Position numbers and translations under genes: made by a program
The notes under the pieces: generated by a model
Told to the model about the DNA's origin: nothing
What the model saw: only the letters and a program-made list of their open reading frames with translations
Database searches by the model: none
In this document: positions 460 to 46,145 of the stretch, in pieces
Position numbering within the stretch: position 1 is the first letter of the stretch
Layout: every line of letters starts with the position of its first letter
Origin: Elusimicrobiaceae bacterium
Lineage (GTDB): Bacteria > Elusimicrobiota > Elusimicrobia > Elusimicrobiales > Elusimicrobiaceae
Length of the DNA: 48,829 nucleotides
Direction of reading: 5' to 3'
NCBI GenBank assembly: GCA_017417005.1
Contig: JAFQAA010000014.1
Coordinates: 1-48,829 of the forward strand

Positions 460-1710
460 ATGAGAGATAAAAAAAGAAATAAGAAAAAGGGTTTTACCCT
501 TATAGAAATACTTGTAGCGGTTCTTATTATAGGTATTTTGGCAGCCATTGCTTTACCTAGTTATAATAGAGCGGTGGAAAAGAGCAGGGCTTCCGGGCCA
601 ATGGCAAACCTTGCCTCAATAGCAAAGGCGCAAAACGCACAAAAACTTGGCACAGCGCATTATACGGATAATGTAGGCAATTTAGATATCTCTTTAACAG
701 ATGAGGCAAGCGGGCAAAGAGCAACGGGCAGCACTTTTGAAAGCGAATATTTTACTTATAAAATATACGGAGATGATGAAGAAGCGGCAGTAGCAACGCG
801 CAAAAATGTTGATGAAGATAAGAAATATGAACTTTCAGTAGAATATGGTTCGGGTAGGATATATTGCCGTCCTGTAGATAATAAAACCTGTATAGATTTA
901 GGGCTTGAAGAAGGGCAAGATTATAATACACAAGAAGACGATAGTGATTGGCCAAATTGTTCTGATAATTTGGGCGCTATAGCAGAAATGTTTGGTGTTC
1001 CGCCCGAAGAAGTAGACGATTTTGCAGCAGTACTTCCCAGTCTTAACTATTGTAAATTAAAAGATAACAAATTAAAATATGGTATGTGTGAAGAACTTGA
1101 TGGAGAAACAGCAGCAGTAGTTGGAGCTTCGTACTATTGTATAGACATGGTGCAAGAAGGTGGTTCATCATATCAAGGATATCAACAAACGGAATGCTAT
1201 TCTATTGATGGGGAAACTTGTTTTCAATATGTAGCTTATGCTGAAGGCGAGATGATGGATAATGGGGATATGGCAATGTATTGTGAAGCTGAACACATGA
1301 ACCAAGATCATACCTGCAATACTTACGATTATATGCATTATTATAAAGGTTTTGAGAACGGAGCATACTTGAATGAATCTTGCACAAGATTTAATGGCCT
1401 GGAATGTCTAGAGTGGCAAAGATCATTAGATTATTTGTCAGATGATCAAAGTACTCGTGCAACTTGTTATAATGACCATATCGGAACAAATGGCGAATGT
1501 AATTATTATGATTATTATCGCGTTGACAGAATTGTTGACGGAGGACACTATAATGGATTATTTTGCGAGAATGGCTATTGCCGGGAAGATCCGGGCAATA
1601 ATTCCGGGAATTTAGCTTGTGGCGGTCCTTGCGGCGGTGTCGTAAACGAAAGAGGCAATGGCTGTTTAACCTATGTTAGAGAAAGTTATGACGGACGTTG
1701 TCTAGATTGA
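460..1710 (+). CDS. Type IV pilin-like protein with a large Cys-rich C-terminal domain
   Basis: This is a secreted, pilus-type subunit of 416 residues, much longer than usual major pilins (about 150-170). The N-terminus is a classic class III signal: a basic leader, cleavage expected after Gly11 in KKKGFTLIEILVA, Glu at mature position 5 (residue 16), then a hydrophobic helix to about residue 34. A conventional pilin core seems to end near residue 135. The rest carries 20 cysteines and many Tyr/Asp residues. Between residues 246 and 369 the cysteines fall in a regular alternating ladder, suggesting tandem disulfide-bonded repeats. The start is fixed by AAGGAG a few bases upstream of the ATG. 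The gene is monocistronic, followed by a terminator at 1734-1766. The C-terminal half uses GGA and TCA codons more freely than its neighbours, which may indicate rapid evolution. Whether it is a pilus subunit or a pseudopilin is not decidable here. Confidence 0.85.
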   Translation: MRDKKRNKKKGFTLIEILVAVLIIGILAAIALPSYNRAVEKSRASGPMANLASIAKAQNAQKLGTAHYTDNVGNLDISLTDEASGQRATGSTFESEYFTYKIYGDDEEAAVATRKNVDEDKKYELSVEYGSGRIYCRPVDNKTCIDLGLEEGQDYNTQEDDSDWPNCSDNLGAIAEMFGVPPEEVDDFAAVLPSLNYCKLKDNKLKYGMCEELDGETAAVVGASYYCIDMVQEGGSSYQGYQQTECYSIDGETCFQYVAYAEGEMMDNGDMAMYCEAEHMNQDHTCNTYDYMHYYKGFENGAYLNESCTRFNGLECLEWQRSLDYLSDDQSTRATCYNDHIGTNGECNYYDYYRVDRIVDGGHYNGLFCENGYCREDPGNNSGNLACGGPCGGVVNERGNGCLTYVRESYDGRCLD

Positions 1711-8129: not shown

Positions 8130-8765
8130 ATGAATATAGCAAAATATATAGATCATACCCTTTTAAAACCGACGGCAGAACGCAAAGATATAGAACAACT
8201 TTGCAAAGAAGCAAGAGAATATAATTTTGCCTCTGTCTGTGTAAATCCGTTTTGGGTTTCCTATGCAAGCAAATTGCTAGAAGGTTCTTCTGTAAAAGTT
8301 TGCACGGTTATAGGTTTTCCTTTAGGGGCAAACACTTCTGCTGTTAAGGCTTTTGAAGCAAAAACTGCCATCCAGGAAGGTGCTAGCGAAGTTGATATGG
8401 TTATAAATATCGGTGCTCTTAAAGCCGGCCAGTATGATATTGTAAAACAAGATATCAAAGCCGTAAGAGAGGCTAGTGCCGGTAAAATCTTGAAGGTTAT
8501 TATTGAAACCTCTTACCTTACCGATGAAGAAAAACAAAAAGTTTGTAAAATTTGTGCTGAAGAAGGGGCTGACTTTGTAAAAACCTCTACGGGTTTTTCG
8601 GGTGGCGGCGCAACCGCGCAAGATGTGGCTTTGATGGCTAAATCTGCCGGCGATAAGGTAAAAGTTAAAGCTTCTGGTGGGATAAGAACCCGCGAGGACG
8701 CTTTAAAAATGATAGAAGCCGGCGCAAGCCGCTTGGGAACGAGTTCAGGTATAAAAATAGTATAG
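8130..8765 (+). CDS. deoC: Deoxyribose-phosphate aldolase
   Basis: DeoC splits 2-deoxyribose 5-phosphate into glyceraldehyde 3-phosphate and acetaldehyde in nucleoside salvage. The 211-residue protein is of normal length for the short DeoC type. The Schiff-base lysine is Lys151 in FVKTSTGF, the second active lysine is Lys180 in [11 protein letters not shown], and the proton-relay Asp89 lies in EVDMVINIG. It follows tpiA by 4 bases. The thymidine kinase gene downstream (21688) gives a second nucleoside-salvage function in the same region. Confidence 0.96.
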
Positions 8766-8776
8766 GTAAGAAAATT

Positions 8777-11689
8777 ATGATTAAACATTGGGAAATTTTA
8801 GAAAATAAATGGACACAAAATTCTGCTTATGTTCTTGGCATACAGGGGGAAGATAGCGACTCTCAACTTATTTTGGGTGAACTTTCCTCTTTTTGTTCTT
8901 TGGTAGATGTAAAAGTTTCTAATTTTACCCATATCTTTGAACTTCTAAATGTGACAGATGATGATATTTTGCAGAAAATTCGCGCTAAGATAGAAGAAAT
9001 AGTAAAGAAAAGTTCTTTAAATAATAAAGACCAATCTTTAAGTTCTACTCCCTTACAGGCAAGTAGTGGTAGCCTTGATTTTGAAACAGAAGGGGCTCCG
9101 TTGGATATCATTATTCACAAAGATAATTTAAAGAGTGATTTAACTTCTTCAACTGATGGAACCCATATAAATTTAAATGTAGAGTCCACTCTTCATTTAG
9201 AAGATACCAAAACAAGTAATATTCCCGAAGTAAAATCTCAAGAAAATAAGCAATTTAAAGAGGAAATATTTTCCGCTAAAGAAAGCAAAAATAATGAGGT
9301 TAAAAAACAAGAACTCAAAAAGGAAGAGAAAGTTCCCTCTGCCAAAAAAGAAGGTTTTTTTAAAAGGCTTTTTTCCTTTGGTAAAAAGAAAAATAAAGTT
9401 AAAGAAGAAGTCTCATTAGGTCCTTTACCCATAGAGCAAGTTGCCGCTAAAGAAGCCGATATATCTAAAAACGAACAAAAATCTAAAGGTTTACAAACCC
9501 CTCAAGCCCCACAAGAGAAAAATCAAAAAGATGATAAAAATATGCATGGGGTTATCGTAAAGGGAACGGCCTTCCCGGCAGAAGAACTTGGGGCTCAAAA
9601 GATTAAAGAAGTTTCTTTAGAAACAAAACCTCTTTTTGAAAAAGAACACGGCGAGGTTTTGCAAGCGCAAGTTCCGCTTGATGATATCTTTGCGGCGGAA
9701 ACTATTTGTCAATTTTACGATGATCAAAATCCTTCAGAGCCTAAAATAGAAAAAATTGAAGATCCAACCCCTATGCCAACCCCAAGAGTTATTACCATAA
9801 CTCAAAATAAAATATTAGAGGAAAATTTGAAGCAGGGGGCTAAGCAAGAAGGGGTAAAAGAAGAAGTTTTTGCTCCTAAGGAAGAAACTAAAGAAACACC
9901 TAAAAAAGAAGTTTTACAAGAGAAAGAAGAACAAGATAAAGGAGCGCAAATGCCTGCTGCTTCACTTGATAAAGGTGCAAAAGTTGTTGAACCCAGCGCT
10001 CCGGTAATGTCTGCTGCTAAAGTTGTTGCAAAACAAACCGCTGATATGCCCGTTTTACCTAAGCAACCTGCAGCCCCAATACTTAAAAAGGAAAATCAAA
10101 ACGCGCCTCAAGCATCTTTACAACAGAAAGATCTTTCTTCCAAAGTTATAAAGACTGAAGAGGAAAATTTCAGTAAATCTAAGGATACCGCTGACAACAA
10201 AACTAATATGAATTTAGATAAACAGGAAAACAAAATGCCTAAGATCTCCGTTTCCGAGGAAGAGGTTTTAAAAATGAAAAATGCGGCAAAGGCTTCTAGC
10301 CAAGATAAAGTTATGCCTAAAGAACAAACAGATAGCAAACAGACAGCACTAAAACAGGGGGCAAAGCAAAACAAACCACAAGCTGCTTTGCCTAAAGCGA
10401 CTCCTAAACCAATAGTTATGCCGCCCATAGATAAAACGCAAATTGACGGCTTTGACCACACTATCCAAACAACCTCTATTCCTGTATATAAAAAGAGTAA
10501 TTGGCCTATAGAAATGCCGATAGTTCCTTCTTATACTTTGGAAAATATGGATATGTCTTCTAATCGTTTTGCTCACGCAACGGCTATGTCTATAGTAGAT
10601 AACCCGGGGACTATGTATAACCCTTTCTTTGTTTTTGGCGAGGGCGGTTGCGGCAAAACACATTTCTTAAATGCTATTGGTGTGGAATTTGCAAAAAAGA
10701 TTTCACAAGATAAAATTTTTATTACAAACGGCGTTCGTTTTTCAAGAGGCGTGCAAAGGGCTATTGAAAACGGGACAATAAATAAAGTTAAAGACTTTTT
10801 AGATTCTGCCCAAGTGCTTATAATAGACGATATTCATTTGACGGCCGTAAACGAAACAAACAGGGAGTTTATTTCCCAGGTTTTAAATGACTATGTTGCA
10901 AAAAGAAAACAACTTGTTATTGCCTCAAAATATCCGCCGCAAGGGTTATCAAGGTTTGAAGAATTAACTAATTTCAAACTCAGCCAGGGTTGGATTTCCG
11001 AGTTAAAACCTTTAAGGCCTAACCACTTCTTAAAGGCTTATGTTAAAATGGCTTTGGATGCTCAGGTAGATTTGACGGAAGCCCAGTGTCGCGGTTTCTT
11101 TGGAAGAGAAAACTTGACTCTTGGTATGATTGATAAAGATATTAAGAGAGCAAAAGTTTTGAGAAGACGCATAAAAGATAGCGGAAGTCTTTCTATTTCT
11201 TATGAACAATTATTAAATTATATTACCGCAATTTCAGGGGAAGATACCACAAGCCAGCTTGAAAGTTTGGATTTGTCAAGTCCACTTTCAATTCGCCGGG
11301 GGGAAAATACCAACTGGGGCAATTTCGGCTTTTTCTTTCCTAAAGAAAGTGCAGATAAGTTTAAATGGATAGTTTATGCCACTATGCAACGCGCAAAAGA
11401 ATTGGGTATTAAGGGCGGTTTTAATTTCGCTTTGAAATCGGCCTATTCAACGGAACATATTATTGCCTCCGCTTTTAAAATTGCCAATGTTTGTGATAGT
11501 AAAAACTTAAAAGCTGCCATAATTTTGGGGCCTGATCCCAAAATAATACAACCGGCAATTAGGGATAATTTCTGCGATATTTTATCCCATATGTTAGAAG
11601 TTATGATGATCCGTTGCGCCATAATTTCTTATGAGGATATCAAAAAACCAAGCAGTTATGTTAGGGTTTTGGGCGATGTCCTTAAATAA
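8777..11689 (+). CDS. DnaA-like AAA+ ATPase with long charged linker and unknown C-terminal domain
   Basis: This 970-residue protein joins three parts. Residues 1-80 are a small unrecognised domain. Residues about 80-575 are low-complexity, Lys/Glu/Gln/Pro-rich and probably disordered, interrupted near residues 190-207 by an amphipathic basic segment (GFFKRLFSFGKKK) like those that target FtsY to membranes. Residues about 590-800 are a DnaA/Hda-type ATPase: YNPFFVFGEGGCGKTHFLNA (Walker A at 621-628), VLIIDDIH (Walker B at about 680-687), and SRFEELTNFKLSQGW. The arginine-finger position appears to be Lys, and the sensor II RELEGAL motif is replaced by MIDKDIKRA. The remaining 170 residues are not a DnaA DNA-binding domain IV. 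It is thus unlikely to be the replication initiator. A lipoprotein gene follows 14 bases later. The function is unknown; a localisation or regulatory role is inference. Confidence 0.8.
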   Translation: MIKHWEILENKWTQNSAYVLGIQGEDSDSQLILGELSSFCSLVDVKVSNFTHIFELLNVTDDDILQKIRAKIEEIVKKSSLNNKDQSLSSTPLQASSGSLDFETEGAPLDIIIHKDNLKSDLTSSTDGTHINLNVESTLHLEDTKTSNIPEVKSQENKQFKEEIFSAKESKNNEVKKQELKKEEKVPSAKKEGFFKRLFSFGKKKNKVKEEVSLGPLPIEQVAAKEADISKNEQKSKGLQTPQAPQEKNQKDDKNMHGVIVKGTAFPAEELGAQKIKEVSLETKPLFEKEHGEVLQAQVPLDDIFAAETICQFYDDQNPSEPKIEKIEDPTPMPTPRVITITQNKILEENLKQGAKQEGVKEEVFAPKEETKETPKKEVLQEKEEQDKGAQMPAASLDKGAKVVEPSAPVMSAAKVVAKQTADMPVLPKQPAAPILKKENQNAPQASLQQKDLSSKVIKTEEENFSKSKDTADNKTNMNLDKQENKMPKISVSEEEVLKMKNAAKASSQDKVMPKEQTDSKQTALKQGAKQNKPQAALPKATPKPIVMPPIDKTQIDGFDHTIQTTSIPVYKKSNWPIEMPIVPSYTLENMDMSSNRFAHATAMSIVDNPGTMYNPFFVFGEGGCGKTHFLNAIGVEFAKKISQDKIFITNGVRFSRGVQRAIENGTINKVKDFLDSAQVLIIDDIHLTAVNETNREFISQVLNDYVAKRKQLVIASKYPPQGLSRFEELTNFKLSQGWISELKPLRPNHFLKAYVKMALDAQVDLTEAQCRGFFGRENLTLGMIDKDIKRAKVLRRRIKDSGSLSISYEQLLNYITAISGEDTTSQLESLDLSSPLSIRRGENTNWGNFGFFFPKESADKFKWIVYATMQRAKELGIKGGFNFALKSAYSTEHIIASAFKIANVCDSKNLKAAIILGPDPKIIQPAIRDNFCDILSHMLEVMMIRCAIISYEDIKKPSSYVRVLGDVLK

Positions 11690-11703: not shown

Positions 11704-12807
11704 ATGAAAAAGTTATCACTTTTAGTAATTGCAAGTTTACTTATATGTGCTTGCCAAAGGATGAACCTGGGCCCAAAAGGCGAAGGGGAATATGTTATTG
11801 GCAAAGCCGAGGTCCCCTATAATGCAAAAAACCTTTCCGGTATGAAAAAAGAAGCTTTTAAAATTGCAAAACAAGATGCTTTAAAAAATGCCGTAGATGT
11901 CTTTTTATCTTCTAACAGCAATATGGATTATCCTAAAAAGGTTGAAGAAGAAATTCTGGCCAAACCGGATAATTATATAAGAAAAGCCTATATCAAACAC
12001 GGCGAGCAGATGGGGGAAAATTATATCCTTGAAGCACGAGTGATGATTTTAGTTAGCAATTTGGCAACAAAAATTAAAAATTTGCAAGATTCTTCTTATG
12101 TCAAAAAAACCAGTATTTTTATTGCAACCAGAGAACTTGAAAAGGAAGAAGTTTCTTTAAACCAATATTGCAAACAAGGTATTTATAAAGCATTTAAAAA
12201 CCAGCCTTATACTTTAATTGACGGCGGTAATTTAAGTCAAAATAATATAGACAATAATGCTTCTATTGTTGATAAAGCAAAAAAAGAAGGTTCGCGTTTT
12301 GCTATTATTGCAGATGCTTCTGCCAGCAATATTGAAAGTGCGGCCCAGCTTTCAACAACCTTTAAGCCCGTTAGGGCAAAAGTTAATATTATTGCCCTTG
12401 GCACAAATAATTATAAAGTTATTGATCAAACTTCCCAAAGTGCCAGTGGCCTTGATGCCGATGAAACGATGGCTTATCAAAAAGCCTTAAATAATGCTTG
12501 TTTTGAAGCGGCTTCCCAGTTGATAGAGCCTATGAACGCCGCCATTAACAGCGCAAAAACTTTCAAGTTTATCATTAAAGAGGTAAACACTATCAAAAGG
12601 CTTGAAAAATTGCAAACTATTTTAAGAGAGTTAAAAGAAGTTGAAGATTTTGTTTTAATTAAATATGTTAACTCCAATGCTACTTTTGAAGTACAGGCTA
12701 ATGTAAATACTTCTGAAGAATTTTCCGCTAAAATTATTAGGAAATATTATAATAACTTTACTATTTTAAACACAACTCCAGATGCTGTGGAGATGGTTTT
12801 TATCTAA
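11704..12807 (+). CDS. Lipoprotein, LPP20/FlgT-like domain pattern
   Basis: This predicted lipoprotein of 367 residues has lipobox SLLICACQRM, lipidation at Cys16. The stretch from about residue 45 to 125 (AFKIAKQDALKNAVDVF, then DNYIRKAYIKHGEQMGENYILEARVMI) matches the helix-strand pattern of LPP20 and FlgT N-terminal domains. The centre is another alpha/beta domain (RFAIIADASASNIESAAQ, INIIALGTNNYKVIDQ). The C-terminus ends FTILNTTPDAVEMVFI. It lies 14 bases after the DnaA-like gene and 3 bases before comM, with GAGGGT as a possible ribosome-binding site. The family assignment is by pattern only. Confidence 0.75.
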   Translation: MKKLSLLVIASLLICACQRMNLGPKGEGEYVIGKAEVPYNAKNLSGMKKEAFKIAKQDALKNAVDVFLSSNSNMDYPKKVEEEILAKPDNYIRKAYIKHGEQMGENYILEARVMILVSNLATKIKNLQDSSYVKKTSIFIATRELEKEEVSLNQYCKQGIYKAFKNQPYTLIDGGNLSQNNIDNNASIVDKAKKEGSRFAIIADASASNIESAAQLSTTFKPVRAKVNIIALGTNNYKVIDQTSQSASGLDADETMAYQKALNNACFEAASQLIEPMNAAINSAKTFKFIIKEVNTIKRLEKLQTILRELKEVEDFVLIKYVNSNATFEVQANVNTSEEFSAKIIRKYYNNFTILNTTPDAVEMVFI

Positions 12808-12810
12808 AAT

Positions 12811-14352
12811 ATGCTTTGCTCAATTACTTCGGCCTGTTTAAAAGGAATAGAGGGCTATATCGTTAATGTTGAAGTTGATATAGCTGCCGGTATGCCTTCT
12901 TTAACTTTGGTGGGCTTGCCGGACCAAGAAGTAAAAGAAGCAAAGGATAGGGTTCTTGCCGCAATTAGAAACAGCGGTTTTGATTCCCCTATAAAAAAAA
13001 TAACAATAAATTTAGTGCCTGCTGAAATTAAAAAATCAGGCACTCATTTTGATTTGCCTATTGCCCTTGGTATTTTGGGGGCAAGTGGTCAATTATCTGA
13101 CACGGCAATAGCAAATTTAAAAAAATATATTTTTATAGGTTCTTTAGGTTTAACAGGCAAAGTGCATGGCTGTGCGGGTGTTTTGCCTATGCTAATAGCC
13201 TTAAAACGCAAAGGTAAAGAAAAAGCCATAATTTCCCAAGATAATTTAGAAGAGGCAAAATATGCTGCTATGGCTTATTTTAGCGCGCAAAATTTAAAAC
13301 AGGTTGTTGATTTACTGGAAGAAAAAATACCTTTTGAACAGGAACTAAAGGATAACTCTGAAAATTTATCTATCCAAGAAGTTTACACAGAAGATTTTAG
13401 TGAAGTTAAAGGCCAAACCTTAGCTAAAAGGGCTTTAGAAATTGCCGCTGCCGGTGGTCATAATGTTTTAATGATGGGGCCCCCCGGAACAGGCAAAAGT
13501 ATGCTTGCCAAAAGATTTGCCACCATTTTGCCACCGCTTGAAAAAGAGGAAATGTTGGAAATTTTGCAAATTTATTCTGTTTGCGGTCTTTTAAATAAAA
13601 GAAAAGGCAATTTCCAAAGACCTTTTAGAGATCCGCACCATACAATTTCAAACATTGCTTTAATTGGCGGTGGGCAAAACCCAAGACCGGGCGAAGTAAG
13701 CCTTGCCCATAACGGCGTTTTATTTTTGGATGAATTTGCTGAGTTTTCAAGAACTTCGCTTGAAGTTTTAAGGGAACCTTTGGAAACTTTTAAAGTTACT
13801 ATTGCGCGCGCAAAGGAAACGCTGACTTTTCCTGCCAAATTTACGCTTATTGCCGCTATGAATCCTTGCCCGTGCGGCTATCACGGACATAATGTTAAAG
13901 TTTGCAACTGCACGCCTGTTCAGATAAGCCGCTATAAAGCAAAAATTTCAGGTCCGCTTTTAGATAGAATTGATTTAACCGTTAATCTTTTGCCGGTTAA
14001 TTTCAGCGATTGGGAAAAGAAGGCCCAAGGCCCGACAAGTAAAGAAATCAGAGAAAAAGTTATAGCCGCCAGAAAAATACAAAAAGAGCGTTTTAAGAAT
14101 TCTACTACAACAGCAAATGCCTTTATGAGTGTAGCGCAAATAAAAGAGTTTTGTGCCTTACCAAAAGATGGTGCGCAAGTTTTGGAACTTGCCATGAAGA
14201 AACTTGGCCTTTCGGCAAGAAGCCTTGATAAAATTTTAAAAACAGCGCGCACGATTGCTGATTTGGAAGGTTCTAAAGATATAAAAAAAGAACATCTTAT
14301 GGAAGTTTTTCAATATAGGCCTTTAGATAGAAAAGGGGTAAGAGATATATGA
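12811..14352 (+). CDS. comM: ComM/YifB family Mg-chelatase-like ATPase
   Basis: ComM is a hexameric AAA+ helicase that extends branch migration when transformed DNA is integrated. The 513-residue protein has the full family layout: an N-terminal Lon-like ChlI domain (VDIAAGMPSLTLVGLPD, LVPAEIKKSGTHFDLPIALG), the ATPase domain with Walker A GPPGTGKSML near residue 223, HNGVLFLDEFAEF as Walker B, the Cys-rich loop CPCGYHGHNVKVCNC, and the C-terminal helical domain ending FQYRPLD. It precedes dprA with a 4-base overlap. Together with dprA and the pilins it suggests that natural transformation is possible, although comEC and pilus motor genes are not in the window. Confidence 0.96.
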   Translation: MLCSITSACLKGIEGYIVNVEVDIAAGMPSLTLVGLPDQEVKEAKDRVLAAIRNSGFDSPIKKITINLVPAEIKKSGTHFDLPIALGILGASGQLSDTAIANLKKYIFIGSLGLTGKVHGCAGVLPMLIALKRKGKEKAIISQDNLEEAKYAAMAYFSAQNLKQVVDLLEEKIPFEQELKDNSENLSIQEVYTEDFSEVKGQTLAKRALEIAAAGGHNVLMMGPPGTGKSMLAKRFATILPPLEKEEMLEILQIYSVCGLLNKRKGNFQRPFRDPHHTISNIALIGGGQNPRPGEVSLAHNGVLFLDEFAEFSRTSLEVLREPLETFKVTIARAKETLTFPAKFTLIAAMNPCPCGYHGHNVKVCNCTPVQISRYKAKISGPLLDRIDLTVNLLPVNFSDWEKKAQGPTSKEIREKVIAARKIQKERFKNSTTTANAFMSVAQIKEFCALPKDGAQVLELAMKKLGLSARSLDKILKTARTIADLEGSKDIKKEHLMEVFQYRPLDRKGVRDI

Positions 14353-15467
14353 ATTTTGAAGAAAAACTTGCCCGCATAAAAGTAAATTCTTTTAGTTATT
14401 TGCGTTCTGATTGGCTGCTTGAAATGATAAAAATTTTTGGTAGCGCAAGTGAGTTTTTAAAACAAGATGCCAAAACTATTAGTAAAGAGGGCAAAATTTC
14501 CCTTGAAAGTGCACAAGCCTTTTTAAAATCTTGTGCTATGCTTGACGCTCAAAAAGAGATGGAAAAAACAGAAAAAGTGGGTGGCAAAATTTTATTTAAC
14601 GGGGAAGAAGATTTTCCAACTAGACTAGCCGAAATTAAGGAAGCTCCTCTTTTAATTTATGCCCGTGGCGATTTGGGGGATACTCAAAGAGCCTCTGTCG
14701 GTATGGTTGGCACGCGCAAAATATCGCCTTACGGCAGGCGCGCAGCTACGCAACTTGCCGGGGATTTAGCCCAAAGCGGAATTGTTTTAGTAAGCGGACT
14801 TGCGCGTGGCATTGATAGCGTAGTTCACGCACAGGCAGTTAAGAACCAAAGTGCCACTTGGGCTTTAATTGGCACAGGTATCGGGCGTTGTTATCCGGCA
14901 GAAAATCGCGAACTTGCAAGAGCAATTTTAGATACCGGCGGTGCCATAATTTCAGAGCTACCTTTTGATGCAGCCCCTTTAGCGCATCACTTTCCTAGAA
15001 GAAACCGCCTTATTGCCGGTCTTTCAGATTTAGTTGTGGTTGTTGAAGGGGAAGTTAAAAGCGGTGCTTTGATAACTGCAAAAATGGCTTTAGATCAAGG
15101 GCTGGATGTTATGGCTGTTCCAGGCCCAATAGATAGTCCAACCTCCGGCGGACCAAATAAATTAATTAAGGAAGGGGCAGGGATGGTTCTATCGGCAAGT
15201 GATATAATTGATGCCATACCAAGCAATAAAAAATTTGGCCTAAAGGTAAAAAAACTCTATAATGAAAGTAAGGCCCCAAGTGAGCCTTTAACCCAGCAAG
15301 AACAAAAAATAATTGATTTAATAGGCGAAGGTTCTAAAAATATTGACGAGCTATCCCTAGAATCTAGTTTTGATATAATGCAGTTAAGCGCAATTTTATT
15401 TAGTTTAGAAGTGGCAGGCGTGCTAATCTGCACAGACGGCAAATACAGCCGCAGTAAATTTAATTAA
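14349..15467 (+). CDS. dprA: DNA processing protein DprA
   Basis: DprA loads RecA on incoming single-stranded DNA during transformation. The 372 residues include a small N-terminal helical region, the Rossmann fold with MVGTRKISPYGRRAA, SGLARGIDSVVHAQAV and FPRRNRLIAGLSDLVVVVEGEVKSG, then GPIDSPTSGGPNKLIKEGA. The last 70 residues form a winged-helix-like domain (LTQQEQKIIDLIGEGSKNIDELS). The ATG overlaps the comM stop by 4 bases, and topA follows 14 bases after the stop, so the three genes are probably cotranscribed. Confidence 0.96.
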   Translation: MNFEEKLARIKVNSFSYLRSDWLLEMIKIFGSASEFLKQDAKTISKEGKISLESAQAFLKSCAMLDAQKEMEKTEKVGGKILFNGEEDFPTRLAEIKEAPLLIYARGDLGDTQRASVGMVGTRKISPYGRRAATQLAGDLAQSGIVLVSGLARGIDSVVHAQAVKNQSATWALIGTGIGRCYPAENRELARAILDTGGAIISELPFDAAPLAHHFPRRNRLIAGLSDLVVVVEGEVKSGALITAKMALDQGLDVMAVPGPIDSPTSGGPNKLIKEGAGMVLSASDIIDAIPSNKKFGLKVKKLYNESKAPSEPLTQQEQKIIDLIGEGSKNIDELSLESSFDIMQLSAILFSLEVAGVLICTDGKYSRSKFN

Positions 15468-15481
15468 GGAAGATAATATTT

Positions 15482-17779
15482 ATGGCTACAAATGCAAAAA
15501 CAGCTGCTAAAACAGCAAATAAAACAACCGGCAAAGCCCTGGTTATAGTGGAATCACCCACAAAACAAAAAACTATAAGTAAAATACTTGGCCCTAATTT
15601 TATTGTTAGAAGTTCTTTTGGCCATGTTAGAGATTTACCTTCAAAAGAAATCGGCGTTGATGAAAAAAATAATTTTACCCCTACTTATGTAGTAAGTGGC
15701 AAACCGCGCATTATTGCCGAGTTAAAAGATGCTTTAAAAAAAGTTAGCGAAGTTTACCTTGCTACCGACCCTGATAGAGAAGGGGAAGCTATCGCCTGGC
15801 ATTTGCAGGAACTTTTAAAATTAAAACCGGAAAACACAAAAAGAATTTTCTTTCACGAAATTACACCGACAGCTGTTAAAGATTCTTTTGCCCATGCAAG
15901 AGGTATTGACCATAATTTAGTTGATGCCCAACAAGCTAGGCGCGTTTTAGATAGGCTTGTGGGTTATAAATTATCGCCACTACTTTGGCGCAAAATAACT
16001 AGCGGGCTTAGTGCCGGCAGGGTGCAATCTGTGGCAGTGCGCTTGCTTGCCGAACGCGCAAAAGAGATTGCCGATTTTAAAGAGCAGCCCTATTGGTCTT
16101 TGAAAGTTAAACTGGAAAAACCAAACGAGAAACCTGCTTTCTTTGCTCGTGCTTATAAATGGGAAGGCAAAAATGTGGAAAGAACCACCACTTATAAATT
16201 ATTTGCCGAAGATTATAAAGTTAAAAACACAATTTTTGATTCTAATGAAAGTTTGGCCGCCCTTAACGGCGTTTTAAGGCAAGGCCCCCTAAAAGTAGAA
16301 AAGATAGAAAAAAAGGAAGTTAAACAGAAACCAAAACCGCCTTTTATTACAAGTTCTATGCAACAAGATGCTTATAATAAACTTGGTTTTTCTTCCCAAA
16401 AAACAATGTCGGTAGCACAAAGTTTATATGAAGGGGTGGAAATTGCCGGGCAAATAACCGGTCTTATAACTTATATGAGAACCGACTCTTTTAATGTTTC
16501 AACGCAACTTCAAACCCAAACCAGTGCATTTATTAAGGCAAAATACGGCGCAGCCTATGCTCCGGCAAAACCGCCTGTCTATAAAAGCAAAGTTAAAGGC
16601 GCGCAGGAAGCTCACGAGGCTATCCACCCGACCGATGTAAATAAAACACCGCAAGATATTAAAAAATATTTAACGCCGGAACAATTTAAACTTTATGAGT
16701 TAATTTGGCTTAGGTTTGTTGCCTCCCAAATGGCAGAAGCGGTGTTTAATACAATTTCAATAGATATTTCTGCTGTGAGTGCAGATAAATGCCTGCTTAG
16801 AGCAAATGGCAGAACTATCAAGTTTAACGGCTATTTATCTGTTTATCAAGATGAACCGGAAGAAGAAAAAGCTGACGAAGATAAAGACGATGCCCTTTTG
16901 CCAAATATGGAAGAAGGCGATACTTTAAATCTTTTAGATATACAAACAAAAGAACACAAAACAACTCCGCCGCCTTGCTATAACGAAGCAAGTCTTATTA
17001 AAACATTGGAAAAGCACGGCATCGGCCGTCCTTCCACTTATGCACCAACTATCAAAACTATTATGGATAGAAAATATGTGGCAAAGCAACCAAAAACAAA
17101 CAAACTTGTTGCAACGGATTTGGGCATAGTTGTTACCGAGCAATTAAAAGAATTTTTTAAAGATATTATGGACCTTTCTTATACAGCAGGCGTAGAGGAA
17201 ACCTTGGATGATATTGCCGAAGGTTCTAAAGGCTGGGTTAATGTTATAAGTAAATTCCACGAGGGCTTTGTTAAAGATCTTGCCAATGCCGCACAGAATA
17301 TGAAAAAGCCCGCACCAAAGGCTGTTGAAGGCGAAAAATGCCCCCTTTGTGGAGGGCCGATGCTTGAGCGTCAAAGCCGTTTCGGTAAATTTTTAACTTG
17401 TGCTAATTACCCCACTTGTAAAGGTAAAAAAAGTTTAAGCGGTGCAAATACTTCCGTTGAACAAACAAATGAAAAATGCGAAAAGTGTGGCAGCCCTATG
17501 GTAATTAGAAACGGCAAACGCGGACGCTTTATGGCTTGCAGTGCTTATCCAAAATGCCGCAACACCTATTCTATTGATGAGCAAGGCAATAAAATTGCCT
17601 CTAGTGGCCCTATTGATTCCGGCAGAAAATGCGAAAAATGCGGCAAACCTTTAGTGCTAAGAAAAAGCGCTAAAGGGGAGTTTTTGGGTTGCAGCGGTTA
17701 TCCAAAATGCAAAAATATCGTGCAAATAACACCCGAAGAAGCCCAAAAAATAAAAGAAAATAGCGAAAATAAAAAATAA
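15482..17779 (+). CDS. topA: DNA topoisomerase I
   Basis: This type IA topoisomerase relaxes negative supercoils. At 765 residues it carries the Toprim domain (ALVIVESPTKQKTISKIL, then TDPDREGEAIAWH), the active-site Tyr331 in LITYMRTDSF and the EAHEAIHPTDV motif. The C-terminus has three four-cysteine zinc ribbons: CPLCGGPM with CANYPTC, CEKCGSPM with CSAYPKC, and CEKCGKPL with CSGYPKC. The N-terminus has an Ala/Lys-rich leader before the Toprim fold. The ATG follows a GGAAGA-type ribosome-binding site, and its stop codon overlaps the start of the recombinase gene. Confidence 0.98.
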   Translation: MATNAKTAAKTANKTTGKALVIVESPTKQKTISKILGPNFIVRSSFGHVRDLPSKEIGVDEKNNFTPTYVVSGKPRIIAELKDALKKVSEVYLATDPDREGEAIAWHLQELLKLKPENTKRIFFHEITPTAVKDSFAHARGIDHNLVDAQQARRVLDRLVGYKLSPLLWRKITSGLSAGRVQSVAVRLLAERAKEIADFKEQPYWSLKVKLEKPNEKPAFFARAYKWEGKNVERTTTYKLFAEDYKVKNTIFDSNESLAALNGVLRQGPLKVEKIEKKEVKQKPKPPFITSSMQQDAYNKLGFSSQKTMSVAQSLYEGVEIAGQITGLITYMRTDSFNVSTQLQTQTSAFIKAKYGAAYAPAKPPVYKSKVKGAQEAHEAIHPTDVNKTPQDIKKYLTPEQFKLYELIWLRFVASQMAEAVFNTISIDISAVSADKCLLRANGRTIKFNGYLSVYQDEPEEEKADEDKDDALLPNMEEGDTLNLLDIQTKEHKTTPPPCYNEASLIKTLEKHGIGRPSTYAPTIKTIMDRKYVAKQPKTNKLVATDLGIVVTEQLKEFFKDIMDLSYTAGVEETLDDIAEGSKGWVNVISKFHEGFVKDLANAAQNMKKPAPKAVEGEKCPLCGGPMLERQSRFGKFLTCANYPTCKGKKSLSGANTSVEQTNEKCEKCGSPMVIRNGKRGRFMACSAYPKCRNTYSIDEQGNKIASSGPIDSGRKCEKCGKPLVLRKSAKGEFLGCSGYPKCKNIVQITPEEAQKIKENSENKK

Positions 17780-45605: not shown

Positions 45606-46145
45606 TTAATCGTTTACGCCTAACTGATAACAGGCTGTTACCGATGCAAAAGCATAGGGTATAAAAGCCGGTAAGTTGGCATTTGGTAATAAATTATCCC
45701 CATTAGCTAAATTAGCACAGACTCTTTGGGCTCTTGTTGTATTATTTCCATCTGACCAACAACAATAAACATTGTGGTCAGTTCCCAATATATCATATAA
45801 AGCATTTCTTCTTGTTAATCTAGCTACGGAAACAGTAGGATTGGTTCCATTAGAATAGTCGGTAGCAGTGAGTACGAAGTTAGTAAAATTAGGGTTACTT
45901 TCTAATCCTAAAAGCTCTAAGCTGGCTGTTGCAGCGGGTATAGTTTCATTTTCTGCAATATAAATTGCTCTTGCTGCTTGCCATTGGCGGACAAAATCAA
46001 TAGCTTCCCTTGCTTTGGCAGTTTCTAGGTTAGAAAAATAAGAAGGAGCAGCAATTGCGGCTAAAATACCTATCATTATTATTACTGTTAAAAGTTCTAT
46101 TAAGGTAAAACCTTTTTTAAAGTTATTTCTTGTGCGTTTAAACAT
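45606..46145 (-). CDS. Type IV pilin-like protein
   Basis: A pilin subunit of 179 residues. The leader is MFKRTRNNFKKG, cleavage after Gly12 expected, mature Phe-Thr-Leu-Ile-Glu (Glu17 is mature Glu5), and a hydrophobic helix to about residue 35. Four Cys appear in the second half: an adjacent pair in NVYCCWSDG, then RVCANL and ASVTACYQ. The ATG has AAGGAG 6 bases upstream and starts 9 bases after the glyS stop, so it is probably cotranscribed with glyQ and glyS, an odd partner. A terminator lies at 45550-45582. Confidence 0.9.
   Translation of the reverse strand: MFKRTRNNFKKGFTLIELLTVIIMIGILAAIAAPSYFSNLETAKAREAIDFVRQWQAARAIYIAENETIPAATASLELLGLESNPNFTNFVLTATDYSNGTNPTVSVARLTRRNALYDILGTDHNVYCCWSDGNNTTRAQRVCANLANGDNLLPNANLPAFIPYAFASVTACYQLGVND

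What the first reader, a model, noticed from the sequence alone, without database searches (positions are those of the whole stretch)
8777..11689. DnaA-type ATPase rewired: long charged linker, membrane-like amphipathic motif, new C-terminal domain
The ATPase core is DnaA/Hda-like but the arginine-finger position looks like Lys and sensor II RELEGAL is absent. DNA-binding domain IV is missing. About 500 residues of Lys/Glu/Gln-rich linker carry GFFKRLFSFGKKK, similar to FtsY membrane-targeting segments. The last 170 residues are unrecognised. It may be a DnaA-derived positioning or regulatory ATPase particular to this lineage.
Basis: partly seen in the sequence, partly recalled or inferred. 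Interest (0 to 1): 0.65.

Follow-up and report, generated by a model that had tools for sequence, protein, structure and literature searches.

The report
DnaA relative retooled beside pilus motor
A whole bacterial phylum carries a second copy of the replication starter DnaA that has lost its DNA-reading end, gained a new kind of end domain, and usually sits in one string of genes with a pilus-retraction motor and a sensor kinase, so part of the replication machinery seems to have been reused for another job.

Summary
The gene is real and is not the replication initiator. It encodes 970 aa: an N-domain, a ~490-aa charged linker, a DnaA domain III AAA+ core, and a ~125-aa C-terminal domain (CTD) that matches no library searched. 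Domain IV is absent; a canonical dnaA lies elsewhere in the genome. It is not lineage-specific: it occurs in 25 of 28 sampled families of Elusimicrobiota and forms one clade apart from DnaA. The CTD is predicted as a four-stranded Rossmann-like domain, and a homologous domain ends a second protein often encoded just upstream. In 20 of 23 families examined the gene adjoins pilT, a GAF histidine kinase, or both; the window keeps only a remnant (deoC, lipoprotein). Outer branches keep all DnaA motor residues. The window's clade keeps the Walker motifs but lost sensor I and nearly always sensor II; the finger position varies (Lys here). The FtsY-like motif recurs in the genus, but membrane binding is unproven. 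Best explanation: an ATP-binding scaffold of a PilT/histidine-kinase module. Family and architecture are well supported; the function is inferred from gene context. Presence outside the phylum was not testable.

The parts
8777..11689 (+). whole gene, 970 aa: N-domain, linker, DnaA-type AAA+ core, CTD
8777..9016 (+). N-domain, residues 1-80, conserved start MxKW across the class and outer families; no Pfam match
9017..10492 (+). K/E/Q/P-rich linker, residues 81-572, very variable in length between species
9353..9391 (+). GFFKRLFSFGKKK motif, residues 193-205; type conserved in the genus
10532..10993 (+). DnaA AAA+ ATPase core, residues 586-739 (Bac_DnaA)
10637..10660 (+). Walker A GEGGCGKT
10820..10837 (+). 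Walker B IIDDIH
10922..10939 (+). sensor I region ASKYPP (Asp of DnaA is Lys)
10976..10978 (+). codon at the arginine-finger position, Lys734 (in NFKLSQG)
11120..11155 (+). sensor II region LGMIDKDIKRAK, RELEG motif lost
11309..11686 (+). CTD, residues 845-970, new Rossmann-like domain homologous to the C-terminal domain of upstream protein c6 of relatives
8130..8765 (+). deoC, conserved upstream neighbour (11 bp away)
11704..12807 (+). lipoprotein-like gene c3, conserved downstream neighbour in f1, f2, f7, f8, f10 (14 bp away)
12811..17779 (+). comM, dprA, topA: conserved downstream block in the class (names from sequence and neighbourhood, by eye)

Best explanation
Shown: the gene belongs to an ancient DnaA paralogue family of Elusimicrobiota in which the DNA-binding domain IV is replaced by a new Rossmann-like domain and the usual N-terminus by another small domain. 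Inferred: it no longer acts on the origin but is an ATP-binding scaffold or switch of a signalling module. In the ancestral form ATP-bound subunits would assemble through the intact DnaA motor, the CTD would dock a partner that carries a homologous domain (c6), and the module would couple a multi-GAF histidine kinase to a PilT/PilU-family motor, for example by recruiting, placing or gating it at the envelope. In the window's clade the hydrolysis and assembly residues have decayed while ATP binding is kept, and in the window's family pilT, c6 and the kinase are gone from the locus; there the protein would work as an ATP-dependent tether with a long flexible linker and possibly a membrane contact.
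For: Family separated from DnaA in the tree, 98/99 support. Domain IV absent here and in outer members; CTD predicted with pLDDT 90.9. CTD homologous to the C-terminal domain of c6: hhalign 97.6% and 97.7%, control with the N-domain 0.2%. Gene order deoC-pilT-c6-gene-kinase: pilT upstream in 14 families, kinase downstream in 15, either in 20 of 23; coding frames overlap by 4 bases with the kinase gene in L069 and L077. The operon pilT passes the PilT/PilU cut-off; the kinase has GAF, HisKA and HATPase domains. Walker motifs kept while sensor I is lost in all rows of the window's clade.
Against: Several f15 genera have PilT but lack the protein, so it is not required for type IV pili. The window's family has lost pilT, c6 and the kinase from the locus. 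In f17 neither neighbour was found. No interaction, localisation or ATPase data exist; co-location alone does not prove a joint function.
Confidence: 0.42

Rival explanations
1. It regulates replication: it joins the true DnaA through domain III and, having no DNA-binding domain, caps or inactivates the DnaA filament, as Hda or a dominant-negative DnaA would.
For: DnaA domain III fold; outer members keep every motor residue and pass the DnaA equivalog cut-off; a true DnaA is present in the same genome.
Against: Scores far below the Hda cut-off; finger, sensor I and sensor II are not conserved in the window's clade, although Hda-type stimulation of hydrolysis depends on the finger (general knowledge); neighbours are a pilus motor and a kinase, not replication genes.
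Confidence: 0.2
2. It serves DNA uptake or competence: an AAA+ protein that works with a PilT-type motor and with the products of the neighbouring comM and dprA genes on incoming DNA.
For: pilT upstream in 14 families; comM-dprA-topA downstream in f1, f2, f7, f10 and others.
Against: The comM-dprA-topA block is not seen next to the gene in the outer families, while pilT and the kinase are; no DNA-binding domain was recognised.
Confidence: 0.15
3. It is a decaying duplicate of DnaA without a function of its own.
For: Motor residues are lost or variable in the window's clade, which sits on a long branch; it is absent from f15 and some others.
Against: Present in nearly all genomes of the window's family and order with open frames; Walker A and the first Walker B Asp kept in every row; CTD conserved to the C-terminus.
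Confidence: 0.04
4. It is a spatial organiser (positioning ATPase) anchored to the membrane by the GFFKRLFSFGKKK motif.
For: The motif type is conserved in the genus although the linker around it is not; long flexible linker.
Against: The motif is absent from f2, f7 and outer members; its hydrophobic moment is not above shuffles; no localisation data.
Confidence: 0.15

Closest known systems
DnaA, chromosomal replication initiator
   Same: AAA+ domain III with lid; outer members keep Walker A/B, sensor I, arginine finger and sensor II
   Different: No domain IV; new CTD and N-domain; in the window's clade sensor I and II lost and the finger variable
Hda (regulatory inactivator of DnaA)
   Same: DnaA-type AAA+ core without domain IV
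   Different: 46 bits against a cut-off of 195; extra N-domain, linker and CTD; finger not conserved as Arg
DnaC/DnaI helicase loaders and IstB
   Same: Related AAA+ core, weak profile matches
   Different: Scores far below cut-offs; none of their extra domains; different gene context
PilT/PilU-family motor with regulator genes
   Same: A PilT/PilU-family gene is the upstream neighbour in 14 families
   Different: No known pilus regulator is a DnaA-type AAA+ protein (own knowledge; none found in the papers searched)
FtsY membrane-targeting segment
   Same: Short GFF-type hydrophobic stretch between Lys-rich flanks (resemblance from memory)
   Different: Lies inside a long linker, limited to the genus, moment not above shuffles
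Argonaute MID domain and other Rossmann-like domains
   Same: CTD fold: 4p1z_D TM 0.69/0.77, rmsd 2.6
   Different: 7% identity, weak E-value (7e-3); I read it as generic fold likeness

Membership tests
DnaA | AAA+ domain III of DnaA type with Walker A and B | tested here: met
   Bac_DnaA E 3.4e-30; Walker residues kept
DnaA | DNA-binding domain IV | tested here: not met
   No match; C-terminus is a Rossmann-like domain; the genome's real DnaA has domain IV
DnaA | Arginine finger, sensor I and sensor II | tested here: not met
   Window: Lys, Lys and Gly at the three positions; outer members have all three
DnaA | Score above the DnaA equivalog cut-off | tested here: not met
   124 against 344 bits; an outer member does pass, 365 bits
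Hda | Score above the Hda equivalog cut-off | tested here: not met
   46 against 195 bits
Hda | Stimulates ATP hydrolysis by DnaA; binds the sliding clamp | not testable with these tools
   needs biochemistry
Helicase loader DnaC/DnaI | Score above family cut-offs | tested here: not met
   DnaI model 32 against 228 bits
PilT/PilU module (works with) | Conserved adjacency to a PilT/PilU-family gene | tested here: met
   14 families; not in the window's own family
PilT/PilU module (works with) | Physical or functional interaction | not testable with these tools
   inferred from context only
FtsY-type membrane-targeting segment | Amphipathic helix that binds lipid | tested here: inconclusive
   Motif conserved in the genus; moment not above shuffles; lipid binding not tested
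Argonaute MID domain | Residues that bind the 5' phosphate of the guide | not tested
   Only the fold was compared

The most novel reading that the evidence does not exclude
A bacterial phylum turned a duplicate of the replication initiator into a dedicated ATP switch of a PilT/histidine-kinase envelope machine, by exchanging the DNA-binding domain for a new domain shared with a neighbouring partner protein; one clade later silenced the motor while keeping ATP binding.
Probability: 0.38. Interest if true: 0.8.

Novelty: new variant of a known kind. Interest (0 to 1): 0.62.

Why it matters
It would be a case in which the core of the bacterial replication initiator was recruited away from DNA, with intact and decayed versions preserved side by side in living lineages. 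It offers a new conserved domain and a conserved gene module to test. It also warns annotators: a homologue without domain IV passes the standard DnaA cut-off, so counts of DnaA in this phylum can be wrong.

Tried and rejected
Rejected: a hidden domain IV at the C-terminus (no Pfam or NCBIfam match, Rossmann-like fold). Rejected: this is the only DnaA. Rejected: invention of this lineage only. Rejected: strict dependence on type IV pili (several f15 genera have PilT but no homologue). First c6-CTD comparison was weak (39%) and became strong when more families were added (97.6%). The A2-A5 comparison shares rows between both sides and is not used as evidence; that the window's CTD and the outer CTD are one domain rests on an outer-only profile that finds 37 rows of the window's clade. 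The genome-contig scan used a pattern typical of the window's class and kept the best 80 hits, so presence outside the phylum is not excluded.

Full report
Source. The window is contig C63 of a 1.19-Mb genome. Contigs of its relatives have the same lengths as records titled Elusimicrobia or Elusimicrobiota (for example the 3,802,950-base contig of G294 and CP096137.1), and one relative is a single contig of 1,643,562 bases, the length I recall for Elusimicrobium minutum.

Observation. The open frame 8777-11689 gives 970 residues. Residues 586-739 match Pfam Bac_DnaA at E 3.4e-30, and the best solved relatives are DnaA domain III structures. The NCBIfam DnaA and Hda models score far below their cut-offs. 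There is no domain IV, while a 456-aa DnaA with the domain IV sequence lies on contig C95.

Architecture. Orthologues show a short N-domain that begins MxKW, a linker of very variable length, the AAA+ core and a C-terminal domain, CTD. In outer families the long linker lies between core and CTD; in the window's clade it lies between N-domain and core. AlphaFold2 gave pLDDT 86.7 for residues 560-970 and 90.9 for the CTD alone: strand and helix four times over, a Rossmann-like sheet. Foldseek's best matches are Argonaute MID domains, lumazine synthase and a lipoprotein fragment, which I read as generic fold likeness. GFF-type motifs occur in 11 of 18 genus rows against 0.1 from shuffled linkers; the rows are related, so this is conservation and not repeated invention. 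The hydrophobic moment does not exceed shuffles.

Distribution. All 40 nearest genomes gave a match, one incomplete genome only to the N-domain. Across 295 genomes of the phylum strong matches run through f1, f2 and many other families. A closer search of other families found the AAA+ core with the CTD, or a clear second homologue, in most, and only DnaA in f15, f5, f11 and one f4 genome. That makes 25 of 28 family codes. In a tree of the core rooted on E. coli DnaA, the family stands apart from DnaA with support 98/99, and the window's clade with f10 is one group with support 100/99 on a long branch.

Stepwise change. The 18 outer sequences (f3, f4, f6, f9, f16-f28) all keep Walker A, Walker B, sensor I, arginine finger and sensor II. 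The 70 rows of f1, f2, f7, f8 and f12 (62 different genes, because eight were fetched twice) all keep Walker A and the first Walker B Asp; all have lost the sensor I Asp; all but two lack Arg at sensor II. The finger position is Lys or Arg in the window's genus, Gln or Glu in f2, and mostly Ser or Thr in f7 and f8. The one f10 sequence is intermediate: finger Arg kept, sensors changed. The exchange of domain IV therefore preceded the decay of the motor.

Gene context. The usual order is deoC, pilT, an unknown gene (c6), this gene, a GAF histidine kinase (c8), then in the window's class a lipoprotein gene (c3), comM, dprA and topA. Within 4.5 kb and on the same strand, pilT lies upstream in 14 families, c6 upstream in 11, deoC upstream in 14 and the kinase downstream in 15; pilT or the kinase adjoins in 20 of 23. 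In L069 and L077 the kinase frame overlaps this gene by 4 bases. The window keeps only deoC (11 bp upstream) and c3 (14 bp downstream), and no c6 was found in eight f1 genomes. The operon pilT passes the PilT/PilU cut-off, and in G126 the best PilT lies on a different contig, so the operon copy there is a paralogue. An outer kinase has three GAF domains, HisKA and HATPase.

A shared new domain. The C-terminal domain of c6 and the CTD align over about 120 columns: hhalign 97.6%, P 4e-12; 97.7% for A5 against A6; 93.5% for A2 against A6. The N-domain as a control gives 0.2%. Neighbouring proteins with homologous domains often pair; here that is inference.

Mechanism. Shown: descent from DnaA, loss of domain IV, the new CTD, the conserved module, and loss of motor residues with ATP-binding motifs kept. 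Inferred: ATP-dependent assembly in the outer clade, CTD-c6 docking, and coupling of the kinase to the PilT-family motor. Against it: several f15 genera have PilT without the protein, and the window's own family has lost pilT, c6 and the kinase from the locus. Control of replication, DNA uptake and membrane positioning remain rivals.

Novelty. Seven searches of an open-access paper library found no description of such a family; subscription papers are not covered. I rate it a new variant of a known kind: a DnaA-clade AAA+ protein with a new architecture and a new context. Whether it exists outside Elusimicrobiota could not be tested here.

Noticed in passing
L220:7645-9513 (and similar outer homologues): A homologue without domain IV passes the NCBIfam DnaA equivalog cut-off (364.9 against 343.9 bits), so such genes are probably annotated as DnaA in public genomes.
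   Followed up: partly
window 460-1710 (+) and 45606-46145 (-): Two genes with type IV pilin N-termini (GFTLIEIL/GFTLIELL); the first encodes a long Cys-rich pilin-like protein of 416 aa.
   Followed up: no
L074-L078, L080 (f7): Upstream of the operon lie deoC and genes that look like bacterial microcompartment shell proteins and aldehyde dehydrogenase (read by eye), so the deoC next to the window's gene may be a relic of that block.
   Followed up: partly
genomes of f15 and f5, f11, G080: The second DnaA-like protein is missing; many small f15 genomes lack PilT too, but several f15 genera keep PilT.
   Followed up: partly
G201:C50:16200-17421: The gene is split between two frames in this genome (matches 1-211 and 211-410): frameshift, assembly error or decay.
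   Followed up: no
L218 and L219 (f17, f18): Short homologues (451 and 453 aa open frames) that begin at the AAA+ core, without the N-domain in the same frame.
   Followed up: no
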